Shown here: positions 12,017 through 46,221 of the stretch, piece after piece | How the letters are laid out: each line of letters opens with the position of its first letter | Numbering within the stretch: the stretch's first letter is position 1 | NCBI GenBank assembly: GCA_030374765.1 | Contig: JARGXX010000111.1 | Location: forward strand, 930,001-994,000 | DNA: 64,000 nucleotides | Direction of reading: 5' to 3' | Origin: Agarophyton chilense | Taxonomy: Eukaryota > Rhodophyta > Florideophyceae > Gracilariales > Gracilariaceae | Position numbers and translations under genes: made by a program | Notes under the pieces: generated by a model | Told to the model about the DNA's origin: nothing | The model's input: only the letters and a program-made list of their open reading frames with translations | Databases searched by the model: none

Positions 12017-12231
12017 CTCTGTTCTAATCGTATTGGAGCTATAGCTCTTGTTCCGATAATATCCTTCCCGTTTGTGCTGTTTACTGCCTTCTTTATTGAT
12101 TGTTTTGTGAGTTGTTGTTGTTATTTTGTTAATTTGTTGGCCTTTTCTGTGAGTGCACAAGGGTTGTCGCGCCGATCTCGTGTGTCTTACGTACCGCCGT
12201 TCTTGGAACATTTTCTCTTGTAGTCGCCCAT
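12017..12231 (-). repeat. Dispersed repeat R1, copy B, middle segment
   Basis: On the minus strand this matches R1 copy C around 28,100-28,260 (GACACACGAGATCGG, then an A-rich part, GGATATYC, and CAAGAGCTATAG). It ends exactly at the target duplication CCCAT of gypsy element 1 and continues at 19,946 on the other side of that insertion. Confidence 0.65.
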
Positions 12232-13145
12232 TGCGGAGCAAAACCCGGCGACGGGAAGTGCTCTCAAGGTGTTCGAAGCCTTGCTCCCTGGGGGAGGCAG
12301 ACTCAGAGACAGAGCCCTCCGTTCCACCCGTAGTGTGGGGTGTAACTCCCACGGGGGATTCCGGCAGTACCGACGGAGGTGAGGGGTAGAAACCGTTGGA
12401 TCGGGAATGGGTATGGGTATCCCAAAGAATGGGGGAAAATCCGGCGAAGAGGAAAAACGGGGCGAGGGTCGGGCACTAACAGGCACCGGACCCGAGAACC
12501 AGAAAAGGGGCGAAACAACAAAAGAAACCCAATACAGGGGCGAAAACCTGTCCTCGAAAGGAAACACAAAAAGCACGCAACAAGTAAGCAGAACCCCCAC
12601 GGGGTATCGTGCACGCAGGTCGTCTGAGCGGTCCCAAGGGGGTGGTTGCACGGAACCCAAACGTGGGCACTCTCCAAGTGGAGTCGTGTCCCTACGCAGG
12701 CGTTGCTAACCAGAGCCCGTTCCGGGTTGTAAGGCCGAAACGATGGCGACGAAGAACCTCTAAAGGTATCGAAGACCAACCTTGGTTGTCATTTACTCTG
12801 AGCTTCGGACTGTCAGATCTCATCTCCCTAAGTAGGGCCCACTAACTAAACTCTACAGTAGTCCACACCTGCTCAGGGCCATACACGTGGAGATCCAACT
12901 GTCAGGGCCCAAAAGTCCAACGTTCTACAAATATCCGAAAATCGGTGCCAAAATTAAGCCACGTGTATCACGGGGCCAATCCAACCATGGGCCATCCGAA
13001 TTGTCCCTTATAGGCGAAATATAACCAGAAAACAGTGCCACCTCAGCACACCATAGAGGGGATCATAATCATAACCCTCGGAGGGTTCAGTCCTCATTCT
13101 ATGAGTTGCATCTTCAAGTATCCCCTAACTGGGCGTTGCTCTACA
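12232..13145 (-). repeat. Element 1, 3' LTR
   Basis: 914 bp, matching 19,032-19,945 at a constant 6,800-bp offset without indels. Ends are TGCGGAGC and GCTCTACA on the plus strand, a TG...CA pair with near-perfect 8-bp inverted termini (the other copy has TGTGGAGC). Long open frames on both strands of this LTR are not supported as genes. Confidence 0.97.
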
Positions 13146-13226: not shown

Positions 13227-13700
13227 ATGGGGTCCTTCACCACTTCTGAGGATCGCCACAAAACCGGCACATCGGTACAACTCTCTTCTACTCCTTCGAC
13301 TTTCGGCGATAAGCAACTTCTCGCAACAGCGGTCTCGACTAGCCCTCTCAAGGGAATGAACGCATACGTCATCAACCCACTCTCGGGGCCATCGGCCTCC
13401 GCGCCGGCGGACAACGAAGCTCCCCAGCAGGGTGGATATTTCTCCGGTTTGGATGCGGCTCCGTCAGGTACCGAACCTTCTGCATCGGCGGGCAACAGAC
13501 ATCCTCAGGAGGATTTGGACATCAACGCGGTGGCGTGGAACTCCGCTCATGCGATGCCCTTGGTAGCAAACTCCAGAGGTTGGATCTCAAACGAATCCTT
13601 TCGAAGGTGGAGTCCCCTTACCGATCCGGTGATATATTCCCGTGTCAGAAATGACAAGCAGATACCGATGACCTTGGGGCGTTCTGATAAACTCCCCTAG
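13227..13700 (+). pseudogene. Antisense accessory gene aORF of element 1 (truncated)
   Basis: Open frame of 157 codons from the first ATG, on the strand opposite to gag-pol and starting about 80 bp inside the 3' LTR. Residues about 100-130 contain WNSAHAMPL and GWISNESF, which match WNSPQAML and GWISSES of the antisense gene in element 2. N-terminal parts also align (FP...MG; LKGMNAY versus PTGMNPF). After about 13,640 the frame reads the opposite strand of the integrase, because an internal deletion fused the two; the last 20 or so codons are therefore fortuitous and most of the protein is lost. It is rich in Ser/Pro/Thr/Gly and has no recognised domain. An antisense promoter in or near the LTR would be needed for expression; none is identified. 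Confidence 0.6.
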
Positions 13701-16700
13701 GATGTCTATGGCCACGAATTCGAGTGGAGCCCGTGCCGGGAACAGCATCAACTTCTTAGAGTGCTTCCGAAGTTTGACGTCATTCTTGGCGCAATTGGCG
13801 CAGGCCCGTCTGACGGCGTAACAATCGAATGCCATTGCCGGCCAGTAAAAGTCCTTTCTCAACGTGAGGTACAGTTTTCTTCCCCCGGGGTGGGCGCCAA
13901 CCTTCAAATAGGGAGTGAGGTGTAATACCCTCTGTTGTAGGGTATGCGGCACCACTATCCTCGGGCGAGGTCCAGCGGTCCTGATTATGTAACCCTGATC
14001 GTCGTCCTCGAAAGGTAACTGAAATCCTCCGTTGAGGCGAGCCCGAATCCGTGTACAGAATGGGTCGAGCTGTTGCTCGCGTATCATCTCCTCTGGAGAG
14101 ATAGGTATAAAAGAGCCGGTCGGCGAATCCAGACTCTCGTTGACGAGTATATCGTCACAAACATCATCCGTCAGCGGTTGAGCTCCTCCCTCGAGGTCCG
14201 ATACCATAAAGCATGGGATGTCATCGTCCTCGTAGGGTTCCGTTTCCGCTGTTGTTCCCAAGCGGGATAGTGCATCAGCCTGAGTGTTCAGCTTCCCTTT
14301 CTTGTACAGGATCTCAAAGTCGAATTCCGACAGTCGGAGACGCCAGCGCATAAGGCGGCCCGAGGGTTCGGAGATCTCCAGGAGCCAACGCAAGCATGCG
14401 TGGTCCGTATGGACTTTGAAACGAGTACCCATCAGATAGGGGCGAAGTGTATCTAAGGCCCACACAACGGCTAAACATTCTTTCTCGGAGACCGAGTAGT
14501 TCCTTTCATGGACATTCAGGGAACGTGACCAGTACCCAATAGGGTGACGTTCACCATCCTCAGAGGATTGGAACAGTGCACACCCTACTTGGTTTGCACT
14601 AGCATCGGTGTCCACTTCGTAAGGGAGCCCAGGATTGGGTAGAGCCAAGATTGGCGGTGATGTTACGGCATTCACCAGTGCCGTGAAGGCAGACGCTTCC
14701 GCGTCGCCAAAAGATTCCAGTTCAACTGGTTGTCCCTTCGTCAGGAGCCTGTTGAGGGGGGTGGCAATATCCGCAAAGTTCGGGACGAATCGGCGATACA
14801 CGTTACACAGACCTAAGAAGGATCGCAACTCCGTTTGAGTTTTCGGGTGTTTTGCTTCCTTCAAGGATTTCACTCGTACTTCATCGATTGAAAGCTGTCC
14901 GGGACGGATGATATGACCCAGATATTTAACCGAATCGGTGAAAAACTCGCACTTCTTGAGTTTCAAGGTGATTCCCGCGTCGCGGAGTATCTTCATTACG
15001 TCCCTGACGTATTCGAGGTGATCATCCAGGTTGTTGGAGAAGACAATAATGTCGTCTAAATACACTAGACACGTCCTCCACTTGAAGGGAGCCAACAGAA
15101 TGTCTATCGCCCGTTGAAACGTTGCGGGGGTATTTGTCAACACAAAAGGCATCCTCCGGAATCGGAAAAGTCCTTGATGACACACGAAGGCCGTTTTGTC
15201 TCGATCTTCCTCCCTAATAGGGACTTGCCAGTAGCCCGAATTGGCGTCGAGGGTAGAGAAAACAGTAGCGCTCCCAAGGGAGTCGATGTGTTCGTCCATC
15301 CGAGGGATCGGGTACACATCCTTAATGGTTACCTCGTTCAGGCGTCTGTAATCGATGCAGAAACGCCACGATCCATCCGGTTTCGGAACTAACACCACTG
15401 GTGAGGCCCAAGCGGACTGGGCAGGTTCAATTACGCCCACTTTAAGCATCTTCTCTACCTGAGATTTCTCCTCTTCCCGAGCTTTCGGTCCAGCCCTGTA
15501 AGGGTGTTGGGCAATAGGCCGAGTGTTCGGTAACAAGTCGATGCGGTGTTCTGTAATCCCAATAGTTCCAAGGGAACCATCCCACATGGGGGTAAATTCA
15601 CGAAGCATGTGCCTCAGCTTCTCCCGATGAGATGCGGGTACATGGTTGAGATCCCATTTCTCCAATTCCTGAACAGGATCCGTCTGGTCTGCTCCTGTGA
15701 TAGGGGCCGTAACCTCCTGAGGTTTAAAGTGTTCAGCGTGTGGAGCTGCAGTCGTACGCTCACCGTCTTCCGCGATTTCGGCAGTGTCCTCCCCCTCCTT
15801 AGGGTCTGCCACACCAAGGACCTCTGCGATAGAGATCTTTGTAGGTACGACCGCATGCGGGTGTGGAAGAACAGAACCCAGGATCTGGTGTTTGACCAAA
15901 TGCTGCGTTGTCTTTCCAAAGTTGGCTACCAAAACCTTGAAAGGTTTATCCGGTTCCACGGAGACAACCCCATTCGCAAGGGCTAGTTGACGCCGCGTAT
16001 ACAGAGACGGGTTCGGTTGTACCACATGCACACCAATTTGCTTGGTAACAACTGTGACCCAAACCTGGGTTTCTGGCGGGATAGCCACTGACTTCGCAAC
16101 TTTTACCCGTGTAGACACCGGGTCCTTCTTCACAGATTCCTGCGCGACGGGGAGAGGAACGCGTGTTCGCGCTGCTCCCTGTAAGGGTTTACGAACGATT
16201 GGGATCGTAGACCCGTCTTCGAGTTCCACAGTTCTATTCCGAGGACGGATGGCTTCCACGAAGCGGTCGCAAAAGTCACAACCCAGTATGACTGGTGCTG
16301 CAAGTGACTTGCATACAATAAACTCCAGTTGGACGAGATAGGAGCCTAACCTCACCATGAGGGAAATTGTACCCAGTGTCCGTAGCGGGTTGTTGTTCGC
16401 ATCGGCGATATCCAAACGTGGACCGGTACGAACTTGGACCCGGAGCAGCGGGGGTAACAATTCCACATGAATTAAGTTAGGAGCGGCTCCTGTATCCAGG
16501 ACAGATATTTGACGAACCATAAACTGGTTGGACAGGCCGAAGTCGGCGAATACTTTATAATTCCGCTTGGCCATTACCATAACTCGATCCGGAATACGGA
16601 GATTACGGGACCGTATCCACGGGCGACGGAGGACACTAAGGTATCCCGAGTTAACGTCGGTGTCAGCCGTTTTCCTTGAAAGGATAGTCACAGCTGGGGA

Positions 16701-16772
16701 GCGAAGCTGGAGCGCCTCGGGCGTCTTCAACTCCGGCTTAGAAGACGCCCCTCCCGCAGGGGAGACTCCCAA
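13587..16772 (-). CDS. pol: Element 1 Pol: protease, RT, RNase H, truncated integrase
   Basis: About 1,061 residues read in the -1 frame after gag. Domains in order: aspartic protease (VLDTGAAPN, then VILGCDF), reverse transcriptase (WRFCIDYRRLN, STLDANSGYWQ, YLDDIIVFS with the catalytic YxDD), RNase H (DTDASANQVGC, HTDHACLRW, ADALSRLG) and the HHCC zinc module of integrase (AHPGG...FYWPAM...CANCAK). The catalytic core starts with the first aspartate (FVAIDILGEF) but runs out after LLVISDT into foreign frame (GIYHRIG...) and stops. The second Asp and the Glu of integrase, the GPY module and the chromodomain are absent because of an internal deletion joining at about 13,640. RT is otherwise open throughout. 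The TTG at 16,772 is not a true start; the product is presumably a Gag-Pol fusion. Confidence 0.93.
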   Translation of the reverse strand: MGVSPAGGASSKPELKTPEALQLRSPAVTILSRKTADTDVNSGYLSVLRRPWIRSRNLRIPDRVMVMAKRNYKVFADFGLSNQFMVRQISVLDTGAAPNLIHVELLPPLLRVQVRTGPRLDIADANNNPLRTLGTISLMVRLGSYLVQLEFIVCKSLAAPVILGCDFCDRFVEAIRPRNRTVELEDGSTIPIVRKPLQGAARTRVPLPVAQESVKKDPVSTRVKVAKSVAIPPETQVWVTVVTKQIGVHVVQPNPSLYTRRQLALANGVVSVEPDKPFKVLVANFGKTTQHLVKHQILGSVLPHPHAVVPTKISIAEVLGVADPKEGEDTAEIAEDGERTTAAPHAEHFKPQEVTAPITGADQTDPVQELEKWDLNHVPASHREKLRHMLREFTPMWDGSLGTIGITEHRIDLLPNTRPIAQHPYRAGPKAREEEKSQVEKMLKVGVIEPAQSAWASPVVLVPKPDGSWRFCIDYRRLNEVTIKDVYPIPRMDEHIDSLGSATVFSTLDANSGYWQVPIREEDRDKTAFVCHQGLFRFRRMPFVLTNTPATFQRAIDILLAPFKWRTCLVYLDDIIVFSNNLDDHLEYVRDVMKILRDAGITLKLKKCEFFTDSVKYLGHIIRPGQLSIDEVRVKSLKEAKHPKTQTELRSFLGLCNVYRRFVPNFADIATPLNRLLTKGQPVELESFGDAEASAFTALVNAVTSPPILALPNPGLPYEVDTDASANQVGCALFQSSEDGERHPIGYWSRSLNVHERNYSVSEKECLAVVWALDTLRPYLMGTRFKVHTDHACLRWLLEISEPSGRLMRWRLRLSEFDFEILYKKGKLNTQADALSRLGTTAETEPYEDDDIPCFMVSDLEGGAQPLTDDVCDDILVNESLDSPTGSFIPISPEEMIREQQLDPFCTRIRARLNGGFQLPFEDDDQGYIIRTAGPRPRIVVPHTLQQRVLHLTPYLKVGAHPGGRKLYLTLRKDFYWPAMAFDCYAVRRACANCAKNDVKLRKHSKKLMLFPARAPLEFVAIDILGEFIRTPQGHRYLLVISDTGIYHRIGKGTPPSKGFV

Positions 16773-16774
16773 GT

Positions 16775-18805
16775 TTAGTTTTTCGAAGCGGACCCCACCG
16801 AATTCGGTGCAGCTGCCTCGAAGGGGACTGGTTGTTCCCCGTTCGCGGGTACAAGTTCTGTATCCCTGTCAGCAAGGTGAGCTCGGAGTATCCTTTGTTC
16901 CTCATAGGACTTACTCGGGACTCGAGCTTTCTCCTCAGGGGTCAGAGCCTCGTACTGAGCGATTATTCGTGAACCCTCCCGCAGGGGAAATGTGCAGTCT
17001 GGTGCTTTGTGACCACGGAGGTAACACAAATAGCAAATCAGCTCTGCCGGGTTCGGTTGTGGACGTGAATCCACGCGACGTGGTGCTGTATCCCTCCATC
17101 CGGGGCGAGAGAACCGAGCAGCGGTATTCGCAAAAGGTAGCGATGCGGCTGGCACCCTCCGTCCGTGGGTATAGAGCGCAGGGTCTTCATCCGTAGTCGG
17201 AGCGGATGTCGACGGCAACTCAGACGTACCCATAGATTCGGGGTTACTTCCCATGAAATGAATGTTATCATTGACCCCCACAGGGGCCGGGCCTCCTGCG
17301 AGTGACAAAGACGAGTTACCCCCATCGGCGAGGAGTGCACTTGTCGGCCGACTCTTTCGGTTCTGCCGGGCACGGAGAGTATCCCCCTCAGCCTGGGCGT
17401 ACTGAACCAATTCCAAGTAGGTCAGCTTGCGCTTCTCTTCCCGATGTCGGGCAACCAATGCCCTTATCGAGGGGTCCAAACCATCCACAAACATGGAGCA
17501 TCTCTCGTAGGCGGGGAATACATTCCCGCATCGGTGAAACGCTTTATTCAAGCGAGTTGAATACACCGTTTCGGTTTCCATCGGCTTCTGCCGCGTATCC
17601 CTTAATGCAAGGATTGCTTCCTGAATCGCATTTCCAGTAGCGTATGACCTCAAGAGGTACTGCATCGCTTCGGGCCAGCAATTGAATCCCCCTTCCGAGG
17701 CTCGGGATGATCCACGGACGGAGTTGAACTGGTCTTCAGCCATCCCCTTTAAGAAATAGGGTAATGCAAGATACGCTTGCGCTTCACTCATACCGAGGAT
17801 GTCAGCCTCCTCGACGAACCTCGCAAGGAAATCGAGCACCAGAATTGGGTCTGTTCCTGTGAACTCCCTCTTCTGTAGGGTGATGCTCAGCCTTTTGATG
17901 TAGTCCTTGACCTTACCCGTTCCGCGGGATGTTCGATCTCCCGAAGGGTTATCCAACCGGTAATAGCGGTACAATAGCAGCTTCCGATAGAGAGGATTCG
18001 TCGGCTTCAGCTCCCTTAATCCAAGGTGTTTCCTACCCTTCTTCCGGGTACAGATTGCCCCTTGAGAGGTGTAAGTAGCCTTCCACCGAGTCGCCCGGGA
18101 TGACCGGCGTCCATCTTCACTATCCGAAGATTCGGAGGACGAACTCGATGACGAGCGATTGGGATCGGAATCCGATAAATCCTCTTGGAGGTGAACGCTC
18201 TTCTTTGACTTGCGGCGGTCCCGTTTAGCGGAGCGGTGTTCTTCGTCTTCCGAAACGTCGGGTTTATCCTTCGAGGCTTCTGTGTCTCCGTCCATACGGA
18301 TAATGGCCTCGAGGGTGTCCAGCCGAGCTCGGAAGCGTTCCGCTTGCACGCGGTGTTCCTCCACGAGGCTCCGGTACTCCTGGATAAAGACCCCAGGGGT
18401 ACCAAAGCTTTCCAAAAGGGAGTTCACATCCCTCCTCAGGGTACGAAGGTCATCGGCGACTCCCCGCACCTGGGCGTCCTCCACCCTGAGGCGGAGGGTA
18501 GTAACCTCCTGAAGGAGCTCGATATGAGCCGCGTTGGCGATATCAATTTGAGTCTCCATGCGCTGTAATTCAGGGTCGGCCCGACTTCGGGGTGCTTCTG
18601 AGGGGGTCTCCACCACTGGAGCTGGGCCCACAGCCACGACCTCTCGAGGACCTGAAACCACTGAGGGTGCTCTCCGAGTGTCCGGACCGATACCGGAATC
18701 GTTCTGATCTTCGGGAATTGAGCTCCTCGACCTAGGCGGGGCCGGGGGCACTGAATCCGCTTGACGGTTCGATCCAGTCCTGGAACCACGGGTAGGCGGC
18801 GTCAT
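16775..18805 (-). CDS. gag: Element 1 Gag
   Basis: 676 residues from an ATG about 226 bp inside the 5' LTR. The order is a Pro/Arg/Ser-rich N-terminus, a coiled-coil-like stretch (about 90-170), a charged segment with a Ser run (SSSSSSSESSDSED), the capsid-like helical region with FLARFVEEADILGMSEAQAY and MFVDGLDPSIRALVARHREE, and a C-terminal CCHC zinc knuckle CYLCYLRGHKAPDC (C-x2-C-x4-H-x4-C). This is a retrotransposon capsid/nucleocapsid precursor acting in cytoplasmic particles. The stop TAA at 16,777-16,775 overlaps GAAAAACTAA, and pol continues in the -1 frame without a stop between, so a -1 ribosomal shift is likely. The frame is fully open, in keeping with the young LTRs. Confidence 0.93.
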   Translation of the reverse strand: MTPPTRGSRTGSNRQADSVPPAPPRSRSSIPEDQNDSGIGPDTRRAPSVVSGPREVVAVGPAPVVETPSEAPRSRADPELQRMETQIDIANAAHIELLQEVTTLRLRVEDAQVRGVADDLRTLRRDVNSLLESFGTPGVFIQEYRSLVEEHRVQAERFRARLDTLEAIIRMDGDTEASKDKPDVSEDEEHRSAKRDRRKSKKSVHLQEDLSDSDPNRSSSSSSSESSDSEDGRRSSRATRWKATYTSQGAICTRKKGRKHLGLRELKPTNPLYRKLLLYRYYRLDNPSGDRTSRGTGKVKDYIKRLSITLQKREFTGTDPILVLDFLARFVEEADILGMSEAQAYLALPYFLKGMAEDQFNSVRGSSRASEGGFNCWPEAMQYLLRSYATGNAIQEAILALRDTRQKPMETETVYSTRLNKAFHRCGNVFPAYERCSMFVDGLDPSIRALVARHREEKRKLTYLELVQYAQAEGDTLRARQNRKSRPTSALLADGGNSSLSLAGGPAPVGVNDNIHFMGSNPESMGTSELPSTSAPTTDEDPALYTHGRRVPAASLPFANTAARFSRPGWRDTAPRRVDSRPQPNPAELICYLCYLRGHKAPDCTFPLREGSRIIAQYEALTPEEKARVPSKSYEEQRILRAHLADRDTELVPANGEQPVPFEAAAPNSVGSASKN

Positions 18806-19011
18806 GCTTCAGACACGACACCGACGATTCGGGGTAACGATGAAATTCGATCACGAGATTCCCGGACAACGGATGAAGTAACACAAAACAAAAATAAAAA
18901 CAATTCCACCCTTTCCAAAGGGGACCACTACAACAAATCTTCACGACGGTGCTTCCTCTTCCAAGATATATTCCAACACGTGGATGACCAACCCAAAAGT
19001 CCGAGAACGGC

Positions 19012-19029
19012 TTCTAAGTCGGGAGACCA
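19012..19029 (-). other. Element 1 primer-binding site
   Basis: On the minus strand TGGTCTCCCGACTTAGAAG begins two bases after the 5' LTR. Element 2 has the same site with one C-to-T change at the same two-base spacing. It would pair with a tRNA ending GGAGACCA; the tRNA is not identified here. Confidence 0.8.
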
Positions 19030-19031
19030 CT

Positions 19032-19945
19032 TGTGGAGCAAAACCCGGCGACGGGAAGTGCTCTCAAGGTGTTCGAAGCCTTGCTCCCTGGGGGAGGCAG
19101 ACTCAGAGACAGAGCCCTCCGTTCCACCCGTAGTGTGGGATGTAACTCCCACGGGGGATTCCGGCAGTACTGACGGAGGTGAGGGGTAGAAACCGTTGGA
19201 TCGGGAATGGGTATGGGTATCCCAAAGAATGGGGGATAATCCGGCGAAGAGGAAAAACGGGGCGAGGGTCGGGCACTAACAGGCACCGGACCCGAGAACC
19301 AGAAAAGGGGCGAAACAACAAAAGAAACCCAATACAGGGGCGAAAACCTGTCCTCGAAAGGAAACACAAAAAGCACGCAACAAGTAAGCAGAACCCCCAC
19401 GGGGTATCGTGCACGCAGGTCACCTGAGCGGTCCCAAGGGGGTGGTTGCACGGAACCCAAACGTGGGCACTCTCCAAGTGGAGTCGTGTCCCTACGCAGG
19501 CGTTGCTAACCAGAGCCCGTTCCGGGTTGTAAGGCCGAAACGATGGCGACGAAGAACCTCTAAAGGTATCGAAGACCAACCTTGGTTGTCATTTACTCTG
19601 AGCTTCGGACTGTCAGATCTCATCTCCCTAAGTAGAGCCCACTAACTAAACTCTACAGTAGTCCACACCTGCTCAGGGCCATACACGTGGAGATCCAACT
19701 GTCAGGGCCCAAAAGTCCAACGTTCTACAAATATCCGAAAATCGGTGCCAAAATTAAGCCACGTGTATCACGGGGCCAATCCAACCATGGGCCATCCGAA
19801 TTTGCCCTTATAGGCGAAATATAACCAGAAAACAGTGCCACCTCAGCACACCATAGAGGGGATCATAATCATAACCCTCGGAGGGTTCAATCCTCATTCT
19901 ATGAGTTGCATCTTCAAGTATCCCCTAACTGGGCGATGCTCTACA
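19032..19945 (-). repeat. Element 1, 5' LTR
   Basis: 914 bp with ends TGTGGAGC and GCTCTACA, followed by target duplication CCCAT at 19,946-19,950. About eleven substitutions separate it from the 3' LTR. As the 5' LTR it should carry the promoter for gag-pol on the minus strand. Confidence 0.97.
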
Positions 19946-20129: not shown

Positions 20130-21728
20130 CCTCAACGGGTGATCCCGCTCCGATATCTCGAACAGCGCCGCTTCCAGCATGTTCCTAAGGTACTCGCCCA
20201 GCATATCTTTCTTCCACAGCAGCCATTCTGCATCCGCCGCGATCCAGAACTTCCCTCAGTATGCGGAGTTCGTCGGGCCGAATCAGATGCAGAACACTGC
20301 ACTCCTCGCTCGTGCTCCCTGGTTTTACCCTGCTGCTGTTCGCTACGAAGATCTCCATGGTCAATAAATAGTCTTGTCGACTTTCTGATGATACTCTGTG
20401 GTATGCGCTTCTCACGATTGACTGGCTGAACTACTGTGCGATTCTAAACAACGCGGTAAGCAGCTTTGGCACCGAAAGCGTTGCAGAAGCCCGCGAAAAG
20501 TTCACTCGGCTATTGTACCCGTGGATGCGCCACGTGATTCGGACCGTTACGTTAAATGACGATTGCATCTTCGACACCTGTATCGTTCGAACAAACGGAG
20601 AAGCTTACTTGTATGTCGAAAATCGTGCGTATTTGGATGTCCACCTGTGCCGCAACGTACGTGCAGTATACAACGTGGCTCTCTATTTCGATAGTCTTCA
20701 GATAGCAGCAAAGTTGCACTATCTACGCAAGCGCAAAAGTCCCTACTAGAATTCTATCGATAGAAAAGACGTACTATATCACGACTAGGATACTTGGTCC
20801 CGTCCCAAATGCTGGAGATCTACCGAATTCGGTATAACTAGCGCATCGGGCGCTACGCTCCTATCTCCTGTTTTCGACATGAAATAGAGAGTCTTCGTGG
20901 TTTACCCGTGGAGCTGCCTCAACTTATTACCTATGCGGGTTTCCACCTTGCATATTATTTATTCTCCGCTTATTGGGTAGTCGTCTAGAGTCCATTCATC
21001 GCTAAGATGGACGTGTTTGTTATTGAAATGTTCATGACATCTATCGTCTGTGGTACGTGAGCTCAATGGCTCCACAACTTTCGAGACAGCTCGATCTTTT
21101 CTCAGTTTTTGGATGACGTGCGAATCACGAAGAGTTTCAGCAACTACTGAGTGTCACGAACCCGATTGACTGGACACTGAATCCTAGAAAACAGAACGCT
21201 ACAGGTAGACCTCGTCGTGATCATTCCCCTGAAAGAACGGCGCCTGGAGACGATTTTGTACGGTATGATCTATGGAACAAACAACACACCGATGGCGATC
21301 ACTCCAAGAGCCTACGGGAAATCCCGAGAGAGACGCCTTCATTGCATCCAACCAGCTATCAATTTGAGCCGGTGCTTCTAAATGCTGACTAAATCGAGCA
21401 CGAGCTTCAAGAAATTGATTACGATGAAGAACCCGAAGATGCGGGCCCCAAAATCACCGTTCCAACGGAACACAACTGCATTGAGCCGATTGCTCCTGCT
21501 GAAACGCAGACGGATGGCCATGAGCAAATAGTGACAGTGGAGATGCAGAGTGCTGCGTACGAACCCGAACAGCCGATGGTGTCGACGCTCAATGTGGAAC
21601 TCGGCAGTCTGAGACTGCTCCTCGAAGAAGCTGGTAATCCTCCCAATGACATTCAAAGCGAACATCAGCAGATTCCGAGTATCTTGCGCTCCTCGATTAG
21701 CAACCACTGTGGCGCTCCAAACCCGTGA
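20130..21728 (+). pseudogene. Antisense accessory gene aORF of element 3 (decayed)
   Basis: Plus-strand frames, broken by stops and shifts, align with the antisense gene of element 2. Near 20,890-20,980 the segment RGLPVELPQLITYAGFHLA with nearby SAYW matches RGFYAELPPCLTYIGSRLL and SGYWNLV. Near 21,240-21,370 PGDDFVRYDLWN, REIPRETPSLHPTSY matches GAGDFVYYDPWE and TRGIPARHPTGF. The C-terminal stretch (21,387-21,728) is acidic, includes STLNVELGSLRLLLEEAG, and ends just before the chromodomain on the other strand, as in element 2. A longer open piece (20,377-20,749, containing RHVIRTVTLNDDCIF) has no clear partner. Function is unknown; homology and position are the evidence. Confidence 0.6.
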
Positions 21729-22567: not shown

Positions 22568-23259
22568 GATTGGGATCCTTTTTCTTCTTTGTTATAATCC
22601 TTCTGCTTTCCAGTGACATCTTTGTCTCTCCATTCGAGCAGGGGAACATTACTGCTTACATCAGCTTTCTCATTGTTGTAGGTTACTGTGGGCGGCTGTC
22701 CTGTTGATTGTTCCACGAAGCGAGGTGCGCGACGATCTTCAAATGAAGCTTTGTTCTAATTTTTTCTCTCCGACCTTATCGGTATTTTTCACTTTAACGT
22801 GACCTAGTGGGGGAGCTGCAACTCGCTGCGTGTTCACGGAACTTATCGCCCATTTCGTTCCCATCTTACCTGGCAGGTACCAAATCTCCCCCATTGATGC
22901 GCCGTGTGGCGGCAGCCCGCTTAATGACGTCATGTGCTCGTTCTCCGAATCGTGCCAGCCACTTGGTAATATTTTTGATTTATTTTTGTTTCTTGGTAGC
23001 AGGTCCTTGAGCGCCTCTACTGTAGGGCTCTGCAATGGTCTTCGCACCTCAGTTGGCACGCGTGTCAGACCTCTCTGCTACACACCAGCTTGAGGACTCG
23101 GCACGACGCCAGCGACACATAAACTTCGTGAAATCATCACCCTATCGTTTGAAATGCGCCCAACATCTTTATCTCTTCGGATAACAAAAGTGTGCTGGTC
23201 GGGATCCACAACTTAATGCGTTCCAGTCGCGATTGGTGGTAATTTGTGACGGCATTTCC

Positions 23260-24170
23260 ATTCCTTTTATTCTCCGGTGTTTCGGTTATCCTTCGTTTCT
23301 ATTTTCACGAAGACCTGTCCTCCAACTCTGATGTCCGAGAGTGCCCGCCGTACCCACACGTCATAATTATGCTTGTAGCGTGCTTGGGCCTTTCCGCATT
23401 TTCGGTTCTGTCCGAACGAATCTCGATTGTCAAAGCCAGTGGGTAGCGTGATACTACCAGCTGGAATGGCGCTAACATAGTAGTCGAATGAACCTTCGTA
23501 CGTTACGTCTAACACAGCATGTCTGTATACAGATCCCTGTTCTTGGGGTGTTCAGCGATGTAATTCCGCGGTGCGGCAAGTAGAATACAGTTGTACTGTT
23601 CCACATTTCCATTACATTGCGGATGATATGTCGTAGTGAACACGTTGCTTTTTTACAGTATCTTTCATACATCCTAAAAGAAGCGTGAAATGAATTGCTT
23701 ACCATTATCTGAGAGCAGAGTATCCGGCGGTCTTTATTGATAAACCCAATGGTGGATAAACGATCGTGCTATCATGGCACCGGTGATACTTTTCAGCGGA
23801 ACAGTCTTGGCCAGCTTAGAGAAGCGATCAGTAAACACCAGAAGGTATCCGTTTCCTCGCTTCGAGCCAATCAATTCTGGAGTAGATCGATACTAACAAA
23901 ATGTAAAGGCGCTTACATTGGGAATGACTTCATTGGCTTTTTCTTCTTTAACAACTTAGCTTTACATCATGCGCATGTTGCGCACAACTTTGACTTCCCA
24001 TGACAATCCATTGCCACAGTAGGCCAATAAAAATCCCCTCTTAGGGTCAGATATAACTTCAATCCTCCTGAATGACCAGACAATTTTTAGTAGCGAGACC
24101 AATGCAGTACTCTTCTCTTCAAAACGTATCGTATCACGACTTGATAATGGGCTTCGACACATCGAACAAG
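23260..24170 (-). pseudogene. Element 3 integrase, frameshifted
   Basis: Across several minus-strand frames the HHCC part (LRGDFYWPT...LCATCA), the core with VSIDLL, GNGYLLVFTDRFSKLAKTV, LLSDNGKQF and TTYHPQCNGNVEQYN, and the tail AQARYKHNYD...VGGQVFVKIETKD can be read. All three catalytic acids (D, D, E) are visible, but the frames are interrupted by stops. Order and identity follow element 2. Confidence 0.8.
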
Positions 24171-24329
24171 AAATCCTTAATCACCGAAACGAAAAGATAG
24201 CTTCTCACCCCAGATGTGTCAATTCTACATATAAAAATACTTCAATATTAACTGGTGCAGTCTTTCATTGAGTTCTACAGGAACATGTTCCATCTTCACG
24301 CCCTAAAGGTCTTTTTCTTTCTATTCCTC

Positions 24330-25190
24330 AGAGACTTTTTTCCTCCATCATGATCTCCATGCCCTGTTCTGCTTCTGTCGGTGTCGATTGCGGTTCGCCT
24401 TTAGGCGTGATTCCTAAGACATATGCCATCATTTTATTTGGCAATATCATAACCGAAGGGTGCCGCAAAGCGCGATCCCAAAAACCTGATTTTTGTACAG
24501 GCAGCGCTTTTCTCAGCCAAATTTGCTCACGAAAAACTTGAAGGGTGTCTTCTGTTTTGCCTGTGCGATGCCATTGGCGACAAGAAATTCACAATTGTTA
24601 TAAACACAGAATTGGGCTGTATGAAAGTGAGTCCATGCTTCTAAGTAACAACTCATATCCACGCCTGAAATTTCGGCGATGTTATCGTCTGCGCACAAAC
24701 CCAAATACTAAGCCAAGTTCTGCCCAGTAGGGCTTCATATTCCAGTGACTGTGGGAACTGTACTTCTGAAGCAGGGCGCCGCAGCGGTTTGCGCAGAGTA
24801 GGTACCATTGTTCTGTCATCCAGTTCCACTTTCAGAGTATTCGGACGAATCCATTCGATGAATCTGCCGCAAAAGTCAAATCCCAGAACAACTGATGCTG
24901 CTAATGTTTAACACGCGATAATCAATTACATGACAAAATGATTTTCTAACCGAACGACAAGTCATACAGTTCCCGCAGACATCATCGCTCTCTTGTTTGA
25001 ATCCCGAATATCCGATAGCTGTGCCATTTTTACTCGATCTCACTCTTCGGTTCGCAGTCTAGGCAATCTGGAAAAGTTCGGAACGGCTCCGTATCCAAGA
25101 CAGCGAGTCTGCGTGACAACAGTGGTTAAAGCAATCCGACACCGGCTTAAACCTTATCATATCTACGGGCCATGACCATAAAAAACTCAG
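24330..25190 (-). pseudogene. Element 3 protease and linker
   Basis: Minus-strand reading gives AVLDTEPF, where element 1 has VLDTGAAPN, so the protease glycine is lost. It then gives VVLGFDFCGRFIEWIRP, matching VILGCDFCDRFVEAIRP, and finally a linker like EVLGVADPKEG. RT does not follow; the next recognisable sequence is the end of Pol before the integrase zinc module. Confidence 0.7.
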
Positions 25191-25599
25191 TCCTTCTTGT
25201 TGGACACACATATCGTTTCCAAAAACGCTCTAAAGTACAGTCTAGCTGTACTCGTTAGATGACTTCCAAAGATTTACATGGCCTTAGAAGGACGTATTGC
25301 TTAATTTCCCGGAAACTAAGCCTGTCAGTTTCCCGGTCAGCGTTATGGTGTCGATCCCAATCGACTCTGTGAGAAGTTTCTCAATTAGTTCCCCGAACGA
25401 GCGGCATTCTCCTCCTTCATCTCGGCGTTACTTCCATCTCGAAAGGCAGCGATTTGCAAGGCTTCATTGTTCTGAATCCCAGTGGGATCTGTTCGGGAAT
25501 GATCCAAATTACCCGAAGCTTCAGCTTTCCAGTACGACACACCTGATAAACGGGTGCGCTCTACCTCTGAAAGGGCTTCTTAATTCAAAACAACTCTAT

Positions 25600-35645: not shown

Positions 35646-36581
35646 TTATATTTTTTTCCATCCTGTCGGATAAATATCGTTTTGACTTTTAACTCTAGAT
35701 CCAAACCACTTCCTTGGAGCAATTACAATTTTTCTCGCATTCTTCCCGAGAAAAGCAGCCCACCAACTAAAAGTACTGTTCGCAATGATAAAATGGTCCG
35801 TAAATGACATCAGCAGAAGGGAAATTAGCGGATCACTTTCGAAAACTATTTTCCAGTTCTGTATGCCTTTTTCTTCGAATATATGAGTAATATGGGTTTC
35901 AATCCATTTTGTATCATCTGAAAATACAAGGAATGCAGAATTACTTGGAAACACAGAAAGTGCGTTTTTATAATACTGCATAGAAAGTGGCTCCAAGAAG
36001 TTTTTGTTAAATTTTTTAGTATAGTCACCTCTTCGAATATGTAGTGACACAACATTAAAACTTGTAGAAAAGTTTTTTGTAACCTCCAAATATTTTTCTT
36101 GAGCTGTTCTAAAGGATTGATCGGACTCTAGAACCTTTCTGACAAAACCAACACTTCTTTCTGCAATATTGGGGCATTGAAAAAGCCCTTTCATTATAAT
36201 GCATTTTTTCTTTTCTTTCAAATACGTTATGGAACAGTTCATTCGCTCTTGATTGTACCCCAAGACATTTTTCTCTTCACAAACTTCTTTAACGTTATCA
36301 ACATGTTTTAGGTTTTTGAAAATAGTTCCAGAAAAGTCTGTTTCGGAAGAGTACTTGTTTTTTATAAAGCAGAAGTTCGTGGAACCAAAAAAGTCAAAGA
36401 AATACTTCGCGGCGGCCACTTGAAACAACTGGTTCCCTAACCTTCCTGAAAAGGGCACAATCACATAGTTAGTCTGATTCAGAGATTTGAAAGTTTTTGT
36501 GCAAAGAGCTAAAAGAACGACAGAGAAAATTAATACATAATGCCTTGCTCTCGGATACAAAATTTTCGGCCAGGCTTTCAT
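35646..36581 (-). CDS. GT11 alpha-1,2-fucosyltransferase-like protein
   Basis: Intact single-exon frame of 311 residues. The N-terminus is a short cytoplasmic tail plus one membrane helix (about residues 15-30, YVLIFSVVLLALCTK), giving type II Golgi topology. The GT11 motifs are all present: FSGRLGNQLFQVAAAKYF (about 44-61), HIRRGDY (donor-binding motif, about 201-207), FLVFSDD and ANSTFSWWAAFLG near the end. GT11 enzymes transfer fucose from GDP-fucose to a sugar 2-OH on glycans. Length fits the family (about 290-330). The gene is distinctly AT-rich compared with the cluster at 1-7,920 and stands alone between repeat tracts. It has no stop or frameshift, so selection is likely. Transfer from bacteria or a virus is possible but untested; acceptor is unknown. 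Confidence 0.9.
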   Translation of the reverse strand: MKAWPKILYPRARHYVLIFSVVLLALCTKTFKSLNQTNYVIVPFSGRLGNQLFQVAAAKYFFDFFGSTNFCFIKNKYSSETDFSGTIFKNLKHVDNVKEVCEEKNVLGYNQERMNCSITYLKEKKKCIIMKGLFQCPNIAERSVGFVRKVLESDQSFRTAQEKYLEVTKNFSTSFNVVSLHIRRGDYTKKFNKNFLEPLSMQYYKNALSVFPSNSAFLVFSDDTKWIETHITHIFEEKGIQNWKIVFESDPLISLLLMSFTDHFIIANSTFSWWAAFLGKNARKIVIAPRKWFGSRVKSQNDIYPTGWKKI

Positions 36582-39565: not shown

Positions 39566-39570
39566 ATAAA

Positions 39571-40387
39571 TGTAGAGCAACACCTGCGCGTAGAACCGGC
39601 CAGGGCACCATTCATATGGCGTCCAATATATCGTGGACCACGTTCGTGATTTTAAAAGTAATAATAGTTTTTAGTATTTCAGACATCTTAGAAGGTATGT
39701 TAGTGAAGTCTTTACAGTAGAACTGTAGTTGACGGATGGACGTCCAGGGCTGGGGTTACACGCATGATACGTGTATGGACCCGGATTGGTTTGCACCACT
39801 ATAATCTACACGGGTACTTCACTGTCTAGAATAGACTTAAGCGATGGCTTCACTGCCATCCCTACCACCAAATAAATGGTAGCCGAGTGCTTGGCTCTAG
39901 ATTATGTCTCCTACGCGAGTCTCTATCTCTTAACGGGAGGAACCGCGACCGGTTTGGCTAATCTATCCTCTCGGGAAGCTCAGGCGTCACTGTATCATCG
40001 TTATTGGTGTGTTTCTTTCTTTTGTTGGTTTTCCTGTGTTGCGGTCAGTATACCGCCCCTGTATAGGATTGTTTTTACCCGTCTTTATTTCGCTTATCCA
40101 GTGTGGATGCCCCTTTCATAGGTCTGTACGCTTGGTCGTGCGTCCTATTTCGCCGTACATTTTCGCCCTACACTTTGCCGTTGTCCGCGGAATATCCTTG
40201 TCCTTGGATTCACCTTTGAGTCTTCCCCCTTTTCCTGGGTTCATCACGTTCGTAGGTATTTCCTGAACCACCGTGGTCTTACACTCACGCATCGGTGGCA
40301 CGAAGGCTCGTTTGCTGAGTTACCTCTCTTCACGAGAGCGGGACTCGAACACCCGAGAGGTATTTCCCCATCTGGGATTTCTCTACG
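39571..40387 (+). repeat. Element 2, 5' LTR
   Basis: 817 bp starting TGTAGAGC and ending CTACG, where the 3' LTR has CTACA. It matches 45,407-46,221 throughout with scattered substitutions and small indels. Confidence 0.95.
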
Positions 40388-40548: not shown

Positions 40549-41417
40549 ATGTCACAGCCTGCCTCCACGTCAAGGAAGGGCTTTGCACGAGTGCCCTTGG
40601 AATTCGTGGCTATCGACTTTCTAGGTGAAGTAATCAGGACTCCTCGAGGAAATCGATATCTGTTGGTGATGACCGACCGCTTTTCAAAGATCGTCAGGAC
40701 AGTACCGCTTAAACGGATTACAGCTTATACTGTTGTGGAAGCCTTTTTAACTCACTGGATCTTCGTCTACGGCCCACCCGTACATCTGAGCTCAGATAAT
40801 AGCTAACCGTTTACGTCAAAGTTCTTAGAAGACGTGTGTTGAATACTGGAAATAAGAAACCTGTTTACTTTAGCCTACCATCCACAAACGAATGGTCAGG
40901 TAGAACGGTTTAACCGTACATTTCTGAACGCGTTACGAGCCCATGTAGCGTATCACCCCAACCAATGGGATTTGTACGTCGACTCATTAACCTATGCCTA
41001 TAACACCCAAGTGCATCGGGTTACTTCACTGTCACCATTTGAGTTGGTATTATCACGCACCCCACCACCAGTGGCTATTCAGGCTCAACCGACGCTCTCT
41101 GCGTTCCCCTCACCGAAGTTATATCGGGAATGCTGGAAGGAATGGTTGAAAACAATGGTTCCAATTGCCCAGAAAGCAATGGACGAGGCCCAAGCTGCTT
41201 ATAAGCGTAATTTCGATGATCGAATACGCAAGCCTCTACCGCAGATAGCGGTTAAAGATTTCGTATTCGTACGTAAAAAATACTACGATCGCGAAAAGGA
41301 TAGACGGCACTAACTCTCACAGATGGCTGACGGACCTTACCGAGTCATCTCAATCGATGAGACCACAGTGGTATTGGAAGTTGACAAACGGCGCGAACGG
41401 TTTCCCTTGATAGAGTG
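40549..41417 (+). pseudogene. Element 2 integrase core and GPY module
   Basis: One reading frame with in-frame stops at 40,804-40,806, 40,840-40,842 and 41,311-41,313. It shows the first Asp (EFVAIDFLGE), the DRFSKIVRTVPL strand, the second Asp (LSSDNS), the Glu (YHPQTNGQVERFN), then AYNTQVHRVTSLSPFELV and, after the third stop, MADGPYRVISIDETTVVLE, the GPY module. All three catalytic acids survive. Integrase inserts the cDNA copy into host chromatin. The first ten residues (MSQPASTSRK) do not belong to integrase and may be the gag start joined by deletion. Confidence 0.9.
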
Positions 41418-42492: not shown

Positions 42493-42726
42493 ATGAAGAC
42501 GGAAATATCCAATGTATACCGACAAGAGTTTGTGGTGGATCACGTTGTTCGTCACGAAATTACTCCAACTGGAGACTGCCGTTATCAAATCCGATGGTAT
42601 GGATATAATCCTGTCGAGGACACTTGGGAACCTGGCGCTCAGCTACCAAGGCCCAAAACTATATCCTATCACCGAAGAACCGGGACATCGTTACCTTCAA
42701 AGTTGGATTGTGCCCAAGTTGGGTAA
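42493..42726 (+). pseudogene. Element 2 chromodomain
   Basis: 77-codon open frame with EFVVDHVVRHEI, CRYQIRWYGYNPVEDTWEP and LPRPKTISYHRR, a chromodomain with its aromatic W-YGY core, as in chromovirus integrases. It is the last recognisable part of Pol and is followed by a minisatellite. Confidence 0.88.
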
Positions 42727-42890
42727 ACCGAAACGGCAAAGAAGTCAAAAAGTCAAGAACTCGAAGAATTCGAGAAGTCGAGAAGTCGAGGAATTCGAGA
42801 GGTCGAGAACTCAAAGAAGTCGAGGAATTTGAGAAGTCGAAGAAGTCGAGGAATTTGAGAAGTCCAAGAAGTCGAGAAGCACAGAAGTTG
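42727..42890. repeat. AAGTCGAGA-type minisatellite
   Basis: Irregular repeats of 9-12 bp built from GAAGTC, GAGAAG and GAATTYGAGA words run directly on from the chromodomain frame. Translated, they give Lys/Arg/Glu/Ser-rich sequence. Copy number probably varies. Confidence 0.8.
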
Positions 42891-42968: not shown

Positions 42969-44677
42969 CTACGCCCCAGTCGAAGGACCAGCCCCACCAC
43001 TATGGGAGACACCAGAATTTGGTTGATAGCTCTGCGCCGCAATGGCTAGAAGCTCTCCCATATCAACTATGTTGAGAAGGACTTCCACAACAATGGATTG
43101 GAGATGAAGGCACATCTCTGCAACCTGCGGATCAACCGTACTCGGTGCGAGCGTCGTAAATCTCCAACCCGCCGGAGCATCCATATCGCCACCCGGACCG
43201 GCTACTCCCATAGGAACGGTCCCTTCAGAGGCGAAGACATCCTCGTCGTCCACGTTTGGATCATCGTTATCGATGGTAACCGGAGCGGTGTCAGAGTATA
43301 CAAATCCTGTTGGATGTCTTGCTGGGATGCCCCGAGTCAGTTGACGCGACGCCCCTGCATGGGCAGCGGTTGTCATCACACCCTCCCATGGGTCGTAATA
43401 CACAAAGTCACCAGCACCTGGAGGCAGGCGTCCCGGAGACTGATCATACGGAGAAGCTTGTCCGCGAGAGCAGTTCGAAGGAGGGACAGTATCACAATCG
43501 ACACTGTCGATGACACTCAGTAGGTAATGAGTTTCACGACAATTCTCGTCAGAGCCCAACGCTGGGTAGAGATTAAGTGCTCGAATGGTTGACTGAAGAG
43601 CAATTAAAAGATACCACGATCGGTTCTGATCATAGGCCTCCCAAAGAATGAATGCCGCAACGCGGGTCGCCCATTCGGCCAGGACCAAGTTCCAGTATCC
43701 GGAGTGCTCATCGGCTAACAACCGTGAACCTATGTAGGTAAGGCACGGAGGAAGTTCTGCGTAAAACCCACGGGGTACTTCGACCTGATTCCACCATCTG
43801 GGAAAGGGTACGTTTTTCCCTCGAAGAAAACGCGGATGAAGGCGTTCAACCTCAATGCTTGGATACGGTACGAAACACCCGAATCGGGAACGAGCTTTTT
43901 GGTCGAAGCGGATCATCTGACAAAAGGATCTCTGAGATTGCCTCTATACATATGGAAATTCCGCTCGGAGAATCGGTCTGCTCCAACACGTCATGTGTGG
44001 AGAAAGCTTTTGAACACCAGGACCATGGTACTCGGCTTTCGGATAGGCAGCTAGGTTATCCCCATAGGATATTTCACCGCGAGTTTGGTAGGATGGAACA
44101 TCAGAGTCAACCGCGATGAAGGTCCTCCAATGGAAGGAACAGAAAATTTGAGCCGTAGGTTCACCCGGAAGGTACTCATCCTCCACATAGGAGTCGATAG
44201 AACCATAGTGGGATGGAACCAGGGGGCTCTGGAATAGAGGAGATTGTCCTAAAAAGGATCTCCCACCACCAACGATTCGCTCGATATCCAACCAGATTCA
44301 TTCTCCGAGACGAGCATCGCTTGAGGCGAATTCCATACGGAAGCGTCGATGAGGTTGTTCACGCAAGGTCGCGAAGTATTTTGAGGAAGCGGGGTTGATA
44401 GGGAACCACTGTGGTGTTTGGATCCCGCGGAGCTCGGCGCACCGGTAGGGACTTGATCGTTGTTGTTCGAAAAGGGATTCATTCCGGTTGGAAACGGTTA
44501 GGTAGGCTGCAATTTAGCAGAAGAGGAGATGTTAGACATATTCGGGCTGAGAGAGTCAGACGAGAGTTTCTTACGAGGAACCGGAACATCGGTGACACCC
44601 ATGATGGAAGTGTAGTATTCTACTATGTCAGGGAATCCGATGGGTTGGTGTTTCGCAAAGTCGCGGTCGGAACTCAT
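42969..44677 (-). pseudogene. Antisense accessory gene aORF of element 2 (most complete copy)
   Basis: On the strand opposite to Pol, about 560 codons can be followed from an ATG at 44,677 to a stop at 42,969. The frame is interrupted by a stop at 44,500-44,498, one frameshift between about 44,300 and 44,249, and a stop at 43,946-43,944. The last open part alone is 315 codons. Landmarks: FPDIVEYY near the start, WNSPQAML and GWISSES (shared with element 1), YIGSRLLADEHSGYWNLV and GAGDFVYYDPWE (shared with element 3), an Asp-rich stretch (DDPNVDDEDVF), and a hydrophobic helix-like segment before a Ser/Gly-rich tail. No known domain, signal peptide or membrane segment is recognised. It ends about 240 bp past the chromodomain, tail to tail. 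Antisense genes downstream of pol are known from some plant gypsy elements; homology to those is not claimed. Confidence 0.7.
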
Positions 44678-45392
44678 AAGTGAGTGTTATCATCAGCATT
44701 GTGATATGAAACGGCATCCTGCATAGGATGCCTAGAGGCAGAATGTTTTAGTGGAACACGTGGCGTCATGGGTCGAGTGGCTTACCACGGCGCGCGCATA
44801 GTTGCGACCCTTCCTAGGGGAATGTCATATTGGCAACGGCGCATGTAGTGGCGATCCACGTGGAGGCCTTTACTACCCTTTGTAGCTAGACGTCCATTAG
44901 GGACCATACCCATACAGTGATTTGGCTAAGTGGCTGACCACTGGGTATTATTTATATATTTATTTGGGCACTCACCCTGGTACACAGTATATAGTGTACC
45001 AGAGGTGAGCGCCGACTCCAAGTAAAGGAGACAACATGGGCATCATGACTATTCTGTTCCTCGCTTAGGATTCCTTAACCGGAGATCCGGACGAGCTATA
45101 ATAGATAGTCAGCCCCCAACCACTTCACGAGCCGTCTCGTACCTACGTTCCACCAACGTTTTACAGTTGCACTGTTCACCGTCGTTGGCGAGTAGTGGCC
45201 TTACACCCCACTTCCAGCTCGCTGGTGTTGTAGCTCTACCACCCCTTTTCCTTCGCCGCAAGCGACCCATCGGCAGTGCGAACGCTGTCGCAGGTGTCTG
45301 CTCTCTCCGTTAGAGCGGATACTACAGGAAGGACTGTTTTTACGCTGTTCGTAAGTCGCTTCGGATTGCGATGTTTCCCCCGTATCCAACTT
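44678..45392. other. Element 2 region between antisense gene and polypurine tract
   Basis: About 700 bp without a supported frame. It would hold the promoter and 5' UTR of the antisense gene. A GTACACAGTATATAGTGTACC palindrome lies near 44,980-45,000. In element 1 the equivalent distance is only about 80 bp. Confidence 0.45.
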
Positions 45393-45406
45393 TAAGGAGG
45401 GGGAGA
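45393..45406 (+). other. Element 2 polypurine tract
   Basis: AAGGAGGGGGAGA directly precedes the TGTGGAGC start of the 3' LTR; it is the same tract as in element 1. Confidence 0.9.
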
Positions 45407-46221
45407 TGTGGAGCAACGCGTGCGCGTATAACCGGTTGGGGCACCATTCATATGGCGTCCGATATATCGTGGACCACGTTCGTGATTTTATGAGTAATAT
45501 TTGTTTTTAGTATTTTAGACACCTTCGAAGGTATGTTAGTTAAGTCTCTACAGTAGAACCGTAGTGGACAGATGGACGTCCAAGGCTGGGGTTACACGCA
45601 TGATACGTGTATGGACCCGATTGGTTTGCACCACTATAAGCTACACGTGTACTTCACTGTCTAGAATAGACTTAAGCGATGGCTTCACCGCCATCCCTAC
45701 CACCAAATAAATGGTAGCCGAGTGCTTGGCTCTAGATTATGTCGCCTACGCGAGTCTCTATCTCTTAACGGGAGGAACCGCGACCGGTTTGGCTAATCTA
45801 TCCTCTTGGGAAGCTCAGGTGTCATTGTATCATTGTTATTGGTGTGTTTCTTTCTTTTTTGGTTTTCCTGTGTTTCGGTCAGTATATCGACTCTGTATAG
45901 GATTATTGTTACCCGTCTTTATTTCGCTTATCCAATGTGGATGCCCCTTTCATAGGTCTGTACGCTTGGTCGTGCGTCCTATTTCGCCGTACATTTTCGC
46001 CCTACACTTTGCCGTTGTCCGCGGAATATCCTTGTCCTTGGATTCCCCTTTGAGTCTTCCTCCTTTTCCTGGGTTCATCCCGTTCGTAGGCATTGTCAGA
46101 ACCACCGTGGTCTTACACCCACGCATTGGTGGCACGAAGGCTCGTTTGCTGAGTTACCCCTCTTCACGAGAGCGGGACTCGAACACCCAAGAGGCATTTC
46201 CCCATATGGGATTGCTCTACA
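45407..46221 (+). repeat. Element 2, 3' LTR
   Basis: 815 bp, TGTGGAGC...GCTCTACA, followed by target duplication ATAAA at 46,222-46,226. Confidence 0.95.

What the first reader, a model, noticed from the sequence alone, without database searches (positions are those of the whole stretch)
42969..44677. Conserved antisense gene (aORF) in a family of red-algal-type gypsy elements
Seen: on the strand opposite to Pol, between chromodomain and 3' LTR, about 560 codons are traceable in element 2. Homologous segments occur in the same place and orientation in element 1 (GWISNESF, WNSAHAMPL) and element 3 (RGLPVELPQLITYAG; PGDDFVRYDLWN...HPTSY), probably also at 60.0-60.5 kb. Known: a few plant gypsy lineages carry antisense genes downstream of pol. 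Inferred: protein-level similarity between copies whose LTRs and coding parts have diverged widely implies selection on a protein used by the elements, perhaps to regulate transposition or counter silencing. I recognise no domain, so this is the best candidate for an undescribed system.
Basis: partly seen in the sequence, partly recalled or inferred. Interest (0 to 1): 0.88.

Follow-up and report, generated by a model that had tools for sequence, protein, structure and literature searches.

The report
Conserved antisense gene in algal retrotransposons
Jumping elements of a red alga carry an extra gene of about 600 codons on the strand opposite to their own replication genes, kept as a working protein across several old element families and matching no known protein family we searched, although similar backward genes of unknown function are already known from plant and fungal elements.

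Summary
The antisense gene is real. The window's copy (element 2, 42969-44610, minus) is a broken member; a solo LTR of another family sits at 44611-45326, so the finding's last 67 bases are not gene. The genome, a red alga's, holds many relatives. I separated six element families (A = window, B-F). Single copies of B-F show open antisense frames of 591-652 codons, 31-51% identical in amino acids between families, with pS 0.69-0.77 (near saturation) and pN 0.35-0.51; no sense-strand frame is open throughout. The gene lies downstream of pol and convergent with it (32 of 33 B-family pol ends with a listed aORF nearby). In B-F its first ATG lies 22-78 bp from the complement of the polypurine tract, so transcription probably starts in the 3' LTR. 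No Pfam, PDB-sequence or fold match was found, but both structure models are poor (mean pLDDT 50 and 56). One relative is a hypothetical protein of Gracilariopsis chorda. Antisense genes at this position are known in plant Retand/Grande and fungal Boty elements; this is a new variant of that kind with a protein that does not match Retand's. Most likely it is an accessory protein; its step is unknown. The copy suggested at 60.0-60.5 kb was not found.

The parts
39570..40386 (+). 5' LTR of element 2 (93.6% identical to its 3' LTR)
40585..41400 (+). integrase remnant of element 2; no gag or RT match was found in this copy
   Evidence: tblastn with pol frames of families B, D, E, F; weak rve_3 Pfam match
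42514..42723 (+). chromodomain-like end of pol, 53% identical to the family-F stretch that matches Pfam Chromo
42739..42879 (.). short tandem repeats between pol and the antisense gene
   Evidence: TRF
42969..44610 (-). antisense gene (aORF) of element 2, family A, broken: open part 42972-43943; protein homology to family B 42975-44198 in one frame and 44201-44491 in another; DNA homology to other family-A copies up to 44610
44611..45326 (+). solo LTR of a family-D element, TSD GGAAG; in 16 of the 26 other family-A loci L002-L027 the two sides of this site are contiguous
45406..46220 (+). 3' LTR of element 2
12228..13145 (-). 3' LTR of element 1 (family B; 98.7% identical to its 5' LTR)
13227..13642 (+). 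N-terminal remnant of the aORF of element 1; the rest is lost at a deletion junction with pol
13587..16868 (-). open frame holding pol of element 1 (RT, RNase H, integrase zinc domain; rest deleted); its last bases are aORF remnant read on the other strand
16775..18808 (-). gag-position frame of element 1, no Pfam match, no significant BLASTP similarity to aORF protein P0003
19027..19945 (-). 5' LTR of element 1
20245..21701 (+). degraded aORF of element 3, family-D-like
23084..25254 (-). degraded pol of element 3

Best explanation
It is an accessory gene of a lineage of red-algal Ty3/gypsy (chromovirus-like) elements, coded on the strand opposite to gag-pol, between pol and the 3' LTR. SHOWN: a frame of about 600 codons under purifying selection on the protein, at the same place in five families and diverging along with pol. 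The protein has a variable Ser/Pro-rich N-terminus, a conserved core of about 350 residues, a tail that is acidic in most members, and a conserved C-terminal stretch predicted to form short helices (low-confidence models). The first ATG of the frame sits next to the polypurine tract. INFERRED: the mRNA starts from an antisense promoter inside the 3' LTR, because only 22-78 bp separate that ATG from the PPT. The protein then acts on the element, most likely in the nucleus on its DNA or chromatin (keeping the element expressed, or helping integration), as proposed for the antisense proteins of plant Grande and Retand. The nuclear step is the weakest link. I put the gene and selection part at about 0.95, the LTR-promoter part at about 0.6, and the nuclear accessory role at about 0.35.
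For: Open frames of 618, 591, 611, 652 and 639 codons in one copy each of B, C, D, E, F (B and C counted from the first ATG, the others from stop to stop), against a longest frame of 269-351 among 200 base shuffles per family. Amino-acid identity 31-51% in the 10 pairs of B-F, with third codon positions at 28-40% and first and second at 47-67%; pS 0.69-0.77, pN 0.35-0.51; the aORF frame has the highest identity of the six frames in 15 of 15 pairs, window copy included. Each of the five other frames holds stops in 5 of 5 families. Intact copies: of the 123 scored matches, 72 of 96 family-B rows and 4 of 27 rows of A or near A have no stop in the matched part, and 42 of the 96 B rows have an open frame of 600 or more without such a stop (my hand counts; best-scoring rows only, which favours intact copies). 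aORF and sense genes are convergent in 9 of 9 fetched long loci; in 8 the sense gene seen is pol, in the ninth (L031) gag with pol mostly missing. 32 of 33 B-family pol ends with a listed aORF within 5 kb are convergent. Pol and aORF divergences are correlated (Spearman 0.86, 10 non-independent pairs). First ATG 22-78 bp from the complement of the PPT in 5 of 5 families B-F (four B loci, one each of C-F). Within family B its omega (0.42-0.87, 10 pairs) is like pol's (0.43-0.90, 6 pairs).
Against: Within families, changes shared by two or more copies show no clearly stronger constraint than singletons (ratios 0.59 and 0.64, Fisher p 0.71), so the within-family data alone do not prove selection. 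A first pol/aORF divergence comparison gave no correlation (Spearman 0.08; see Tried and rejected). No transcript was seen. No domain, fold or localisation evidence supports a nuclear role; the core is not strongly basic (net charge -5 to +4 in families B-F; +13 in partial P0007). I did not test for a nuclear localisation signal. That the first ATG is the start codon is assumed.
Confidence: 0.5

Rival explanations
1. The protein works in the cytoplasm or inside the particle (packaging, capsid function, or spread, env-like), not on chromatin.
For: Low-complexity tail and a conserved C-terminal stretch could be an interaction tail; some plant aORFs are env-like, but those are in sense orientation (PMC7264820, passages read).
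Against: No significant BLASTP similarity of P0003 to the gag-position protein of element 1; no Pfam family. I made no transmembrane prediction.
Confidence: 0.25
2. A captured host gene carried as a passenger.
For: Antisense orientation with its own start; elements do capture genes.
Against: Present in several diverged families at the same place, with divergence tracking pol; three protein searches (two of them scoring only the best 8000 candidates) found 7 relatives, of which only one carries a name, 'hypothetical protein'. Host copies outside elements were not searched for systematically.
Confidence: 0.07
3. The antisense RNA, not a protein, is the product (self-silencing or copy control through double-stranded RNA).
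For: Convergent arrangement would give overlap with the sense transcript if transcribed.
Against: The constraint is on codons in the antisense frame. RNA may be an additional effect, not the sole one.
Confidence: 0.05
4. The antisense frame is a shadow of a sense-strand gene.
For: The sense frame sharing third codon positions shows 26-43% identity between families, and sense open frames of 180-411 codons occur opposite the aORF.
Against: That sense frame holds 19-29 stops in 5 of 5 families; the long sense frames lie in another frame, which has 16-30% identity.
Confidence: 0.02

Closest known systems
Antisense ORFs of plant Retand elements (TRP28 / Transposase_28, PF04195)
   Same: Ty3/gypsy element, antisense gene between pol and 3' LTR, conserved over families, function unknown, often tandem repeats in that region (PMC11963269, abstract and passages read)
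   Different: Retand is a non-chromovirus lineage of plants; none of 13 aORF proteins (red-algal genome and database relatives) matches PF04195 in Pfam at E<=10; here the gene starts next to the PPT (not compared with Retand)
gene23 of maize Grande and aORF of rice RIRE2
   Same: antisense gene between pol and 3' LTR; Grande's is transcribed antisense and nuclear (PMC7264820, passages read)
   Different: Grande's promoter is described as upstream of gene23; no sequence comparison was made here
brtn of fungal Boty (Botrytis)
   Same: additional antisense gene in a Boty/gypsy element (PMC7264820 and PMC8365987, passages read; the original report seen only as a cited reference)
   Different: fungal host; no sequence comparison was made here
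HBZ of HTLV-1 (antisense gene; HTLV has an antisense promoter in its 3' LTR)
   Same: at most works like it: antisense gene read from the 3' LTR side (named in PMC11963269, promoter in PMC7264820, passages read)
   Different: no homology claimed; the LTR promoter is only inferred here

Membership tests
Ty3/gypsy chromovirus | RT, RNase H and integrase in the order RT-RH-INT | tested here: met
   family B L033: RVT_1, RT_RNaseH, Integrase_H2C2, rve in order; family E, RH-INT part. Not met in the one family-C copy read, which lacks an integrase match
Ty3/gypsy chromovirus | chromodomain at the end of integrase | tested here: met
   above Pfam cut-off in family F only (1.3e-6); below cut-off in C (5e-4); no match in the pol-end frames scanned of B and D, nor in the main frame of E, whose last frame was not scanned; window stretch 42514-42723 is 53% identical to F's
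Antisense accessory ORF between pol and 3' LTR (aORF-3R) | conserved frame, opposite strand, between pol and 3' LTR | tested here: met
   3' LTR mapped by repeat only for A and B
Retand TRP28 antisense protein | TRP28 domain PF04195 | tested here: not met
   no match in 13 of 13 proteins at E<=10, speed filters on; distant structural relation not excluded
Retand lineage | non-chromovirus RT phylogeny | not tested
   no RT tree with plant lineages was made
HBZ-like LTR-driven antisense gene | transcript starting in the 3' LTR | not testable with these tools
   only the closeness of the first ATG to the PPT is shown
any known protein fold | structural match to a solved or viral protein | tested here: inconclusive
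   models of mean pLDDT 50.3 and 55.9; no match at E<=0.001

The most novel reading that the evidence does not exclude
Red-algal retrotransposons carry an LTR-driven antisense gene, evolved independently of those of plants and fungi, whose product is a new DNA- or chromatin-acting protein that protects its own element family from silencing: a two-way LTR element with a dedicated regulator.
Probability: 0.22. Interest if true: 0.82.

Novelty: new variant of a known kind. Interest (0 to 1): 0.56.

Why it matters
Antisense genes between pol and the 3' LTR recur in plants, fungi and now a red alga, and the red-algal protein does not match the plant TRP28 domain. That recurrence suggests a shared need that gag-pol does not cover. 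The red-algal case offers several diverged families with many open copies in one 80-Mb genome, and a first ATG that points to an LTR antisense promoter, so transcription, localisation and binding can be tested directly. LTR elements make up a large part of such genomes (17% in Gracilariopsis lemaneiformis, PMC5970526, passages read).

Tried and rejected

Considered and rejected: shadow of a sense gene; a further copy at 60.0-60.5 kb; the long sense frames of 180-411 codons opposite the aORF as genes (poorly conserved frame). A first pol/aORF divergence comparison on a global alignment showed no correlation (Spearman 0.08). It was dropped because the pol frames cover different parts and the family-C copy lacks an integrase match. 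With local pairwise identities the correlation is 0.86 (values); there I left out three local matches of the separate family-D integrase frame (66% to B, 53% to E, 49% to F). In one search the script dropped pol pairs with under 150 shared codons or under 85% identity: 6 of 15 possible pairs remain. In one search only family-A loci with a near full-length match entered (15 of 27).

Literature: the ten searches listed no paper on antisense genes in red-algal elements that I recognised from titles and abstracts. Most subscription papers are not held, and the G. chorda genome paper (recalled) was not seen.

Full report
What is in the window. Element 2 (plus strand) has LTRs at 39570-40386 and 45406-46220, 93.6% identical. 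Its interior keeps an integrase remnant (40585-41400) and a chromodomain-like end (42514-42723); no gag or RT match was found in it. On the minus strand, 42972-43943 is open for 324 codons. Protein homology to family B runs to 44198 in that frame and over 44201-44491 in another. This copy is broken: in-frame stop, frame change, a gap of 41 codons against family B that 6 of 7 other family-A copies tested do not have (the seventh alignment does not reach it), and a 716-bp solo LTR of family D at 44611-45326 with a 5-bp target duplication. In 16 of the 26 other family-A or near-A loci (L002-L027) the two sides of that insertion are contiguous; the rest are not clear in that search. The finding's end at 44677 therefore runs 67 bases into the solo LTR.

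Element 1 (minus strand, LTRs 12228-13145 and 19027-19945, 98.7%) is a family-B element. Its internal deletion removed most of the integrase, the end of pol and most of the antisense gene, leaving 13227-13642. Element 3 is degraded: antisense gene 20245-21701 (+), pol 25254-23084 (-), closest to family D. No relative was found at 60.0-60.5 kb, at E<=1 with 11 query proteins or at E<=10 with the window's own copy.

The genome. The window lies in an 80-Mb assembly of 135 contigs. It has 13 matches to the phycobilisome linker domain. One of these proteins matches phycobilisome linker chains in the PDB (best hit a CpcN chain, E 3e-194; LRC2 of 5y6p, E 4e-114; that 5y6p is red-algal is recalled). 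One relative of the antisense protein is a hypothetical protein of Gracilariopsis chorda (P0004). So the host is very probably a red alga; the species was not determined.

Relatives of the antisense gene. A search of the genome with the window's 324 codons gave 123 scored matches of 1593 candidates: 27 of family A or near it (56-100% identity) and 96 of family B (44-47%) (the split is mine). Of these, 4 of 27 (the window's own among them) and 72 of 96 have no stop in the matched part; 42 of the 96 also have an open frame of at least 600 codons. These are hand counts on best-scoring rows, which favours intact copies. A second search with the metagenome protein P0001 gave 115 scored matches of 1645 candidates, many with open frames of 611-681 codons. 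Of these I read 25 loci: 15 returned by that search and 10 fetched later. Families C, D, E and F come from them, and a further family-C copy sits in L033.

Selection. Between one copy each of B, C, D, E, F, amino-acid identity is 31-51% over 544-617 codons. pS is 0.69-0.77 and pN 0.35-0.51. First and second codon positions agree in 47-67%, third in 28-40% (the 5 pairs with the open part of the window copy give 31-45% identity). In 15 of 15 pairs the aORF frame has the highest identity of the six frames, in some pairs by only 1 point over the sense frame that shares its third positions. In 5 of 5 families each of the five other frames contains stops (3 to 29), and the aORF frame none. This is strong evidence for a selected protein on the antisense strand. 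Within families the picture is weaker: median omega 0.56 (B, 6 copies), 0.59 (C, 5), 0.67 (D, 7), 0.74 (E, 4), 0.72 (A, 15). Shared changes are not clearly more constrained than singletons. Pol in family B gives 0.43-0.90 in 6 pairs and the aORF 0.42-0.87 in 10 pairs, so the antisense gene is no laxer than pol among young copies.

Place. In 9 of 9 long loci (five B, one each of C-F) the antisense gene is convergent with the sense genes. In 8 the sense gene seen is pol; in L031 it is gag, with pol mostly missing. The second aORF in L033 (family C) lies too near the end of the stretch to tell. Of 104 scored family-B pol ends, 33 have one of the 96 listed family-B aORFs within 5 kb, and 32 of those 33 are convergent and downstream, with a median gap of about 1.2 kb between the matched parts; the other 71 are not informative, because the aORF list is incomplete. 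In B, C, D, E and F the first ATG of the frame lies 22-78 bp from the complement of the polypurine tract (four B loci, one each of C-F; not examined in family A beyond the window copy, where the solo LTR intervenes). For B the 3' LTR edge lies there too; LTR ends of C-F were not mapped by pairs of repeats.

Co-inheritance. With local pairwise identities, pol (52-70%) and aORF (31-51%) divergences of the 10 pairs of B-F are correlated (Spearman 0.86; pairs are not independent, and three short integrase matches of family D were left out). An earlier global-alignment version gave 0.08 and was set aside for the reasons given under Tried and rejected. In these pairs the aORF is less conserved than pol.

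The protein. In families B-F: N-terminus of 117-159 residues, about 40% Ser/Pro/Thr/Gly; core of 351-354 residues; tail of 103-140 residues with net charge -12 to -19. Tails of the database relatives range from -18 to +5 (P0006). Predicted secondary structure of the core is mostly helical, but confidence is low. No family or fold match. Three searches of 5.8 billion proteins found 7 relatives in all (P0001-P0007); in the last two only about 8000 candidates were scored, so this is a lower bound.

How it may work. The closeness of the first ATG to the PPT leaves little room for a promoter inside the element, so I infer an antisense promoter in the 3' LTR. If so, the 5' LTR carries the same promoter and would read outward into flanking DNA. 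The product is most simply an accessory protein that the element needs over evolutionary time. By analogy with Grande gene23 (nuclear, transcribed antisense) and the suggested DNA binding of TRP28 (PMC7264820, PMC11963269; passages read), a nuclear role on element DNA or chromatin is my first guess at about 0.35. Nothing in the sequence data shows it.

Novelty. Antisense genes at this place are a known kind. Here the protein does not match PF04195 by sequence, at least one of the families has a clear chromodomain, and the host is a red alga. I saw no report of it in the searches listed, which do not cover most subscription journals.

Noticed in passing
L064:4710-8729 (family C): The 1340-codon pol-position frame has RT and RNase H, then a long hydrophilic low-complexity stretch where integrase should be, then a weak chromodomain match; this copy may depend on another element's integrase. 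One copy only was read.
   Followed up: partly
window 44611-45326: Solo LTR of a family-D element with TSD GGAAG, nested in element 2.
   Followed up: yes
window 436-3654 (+): RelA/SpoT homologue (HD, RelA_SpoT, TGS, ACT domains).
   Followed up: no
window 35646-36611 (-): Glycosyl transferase family 11 protein.
   Followed up: no
window 52084-53472 (+): Copia-type RT (RVT_2) with a PTM/DIR17-like Tudor match below cut-off upstream in the same frame.
   Followed up: no
family B loci, e.g. L033:5532-6137 (+): A second antisense frame of about 200 codons just beyond the end of pol in family-B copies; no Pfam match; conservation across families not tested.
   Followed up: no
L039 and L040 (C68:1137739-1138623 and C68:1141040-1141924): Two family-D aORF copies with the same score lie about 2.4 kb apart in opposite orientation.
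   Followed up: no
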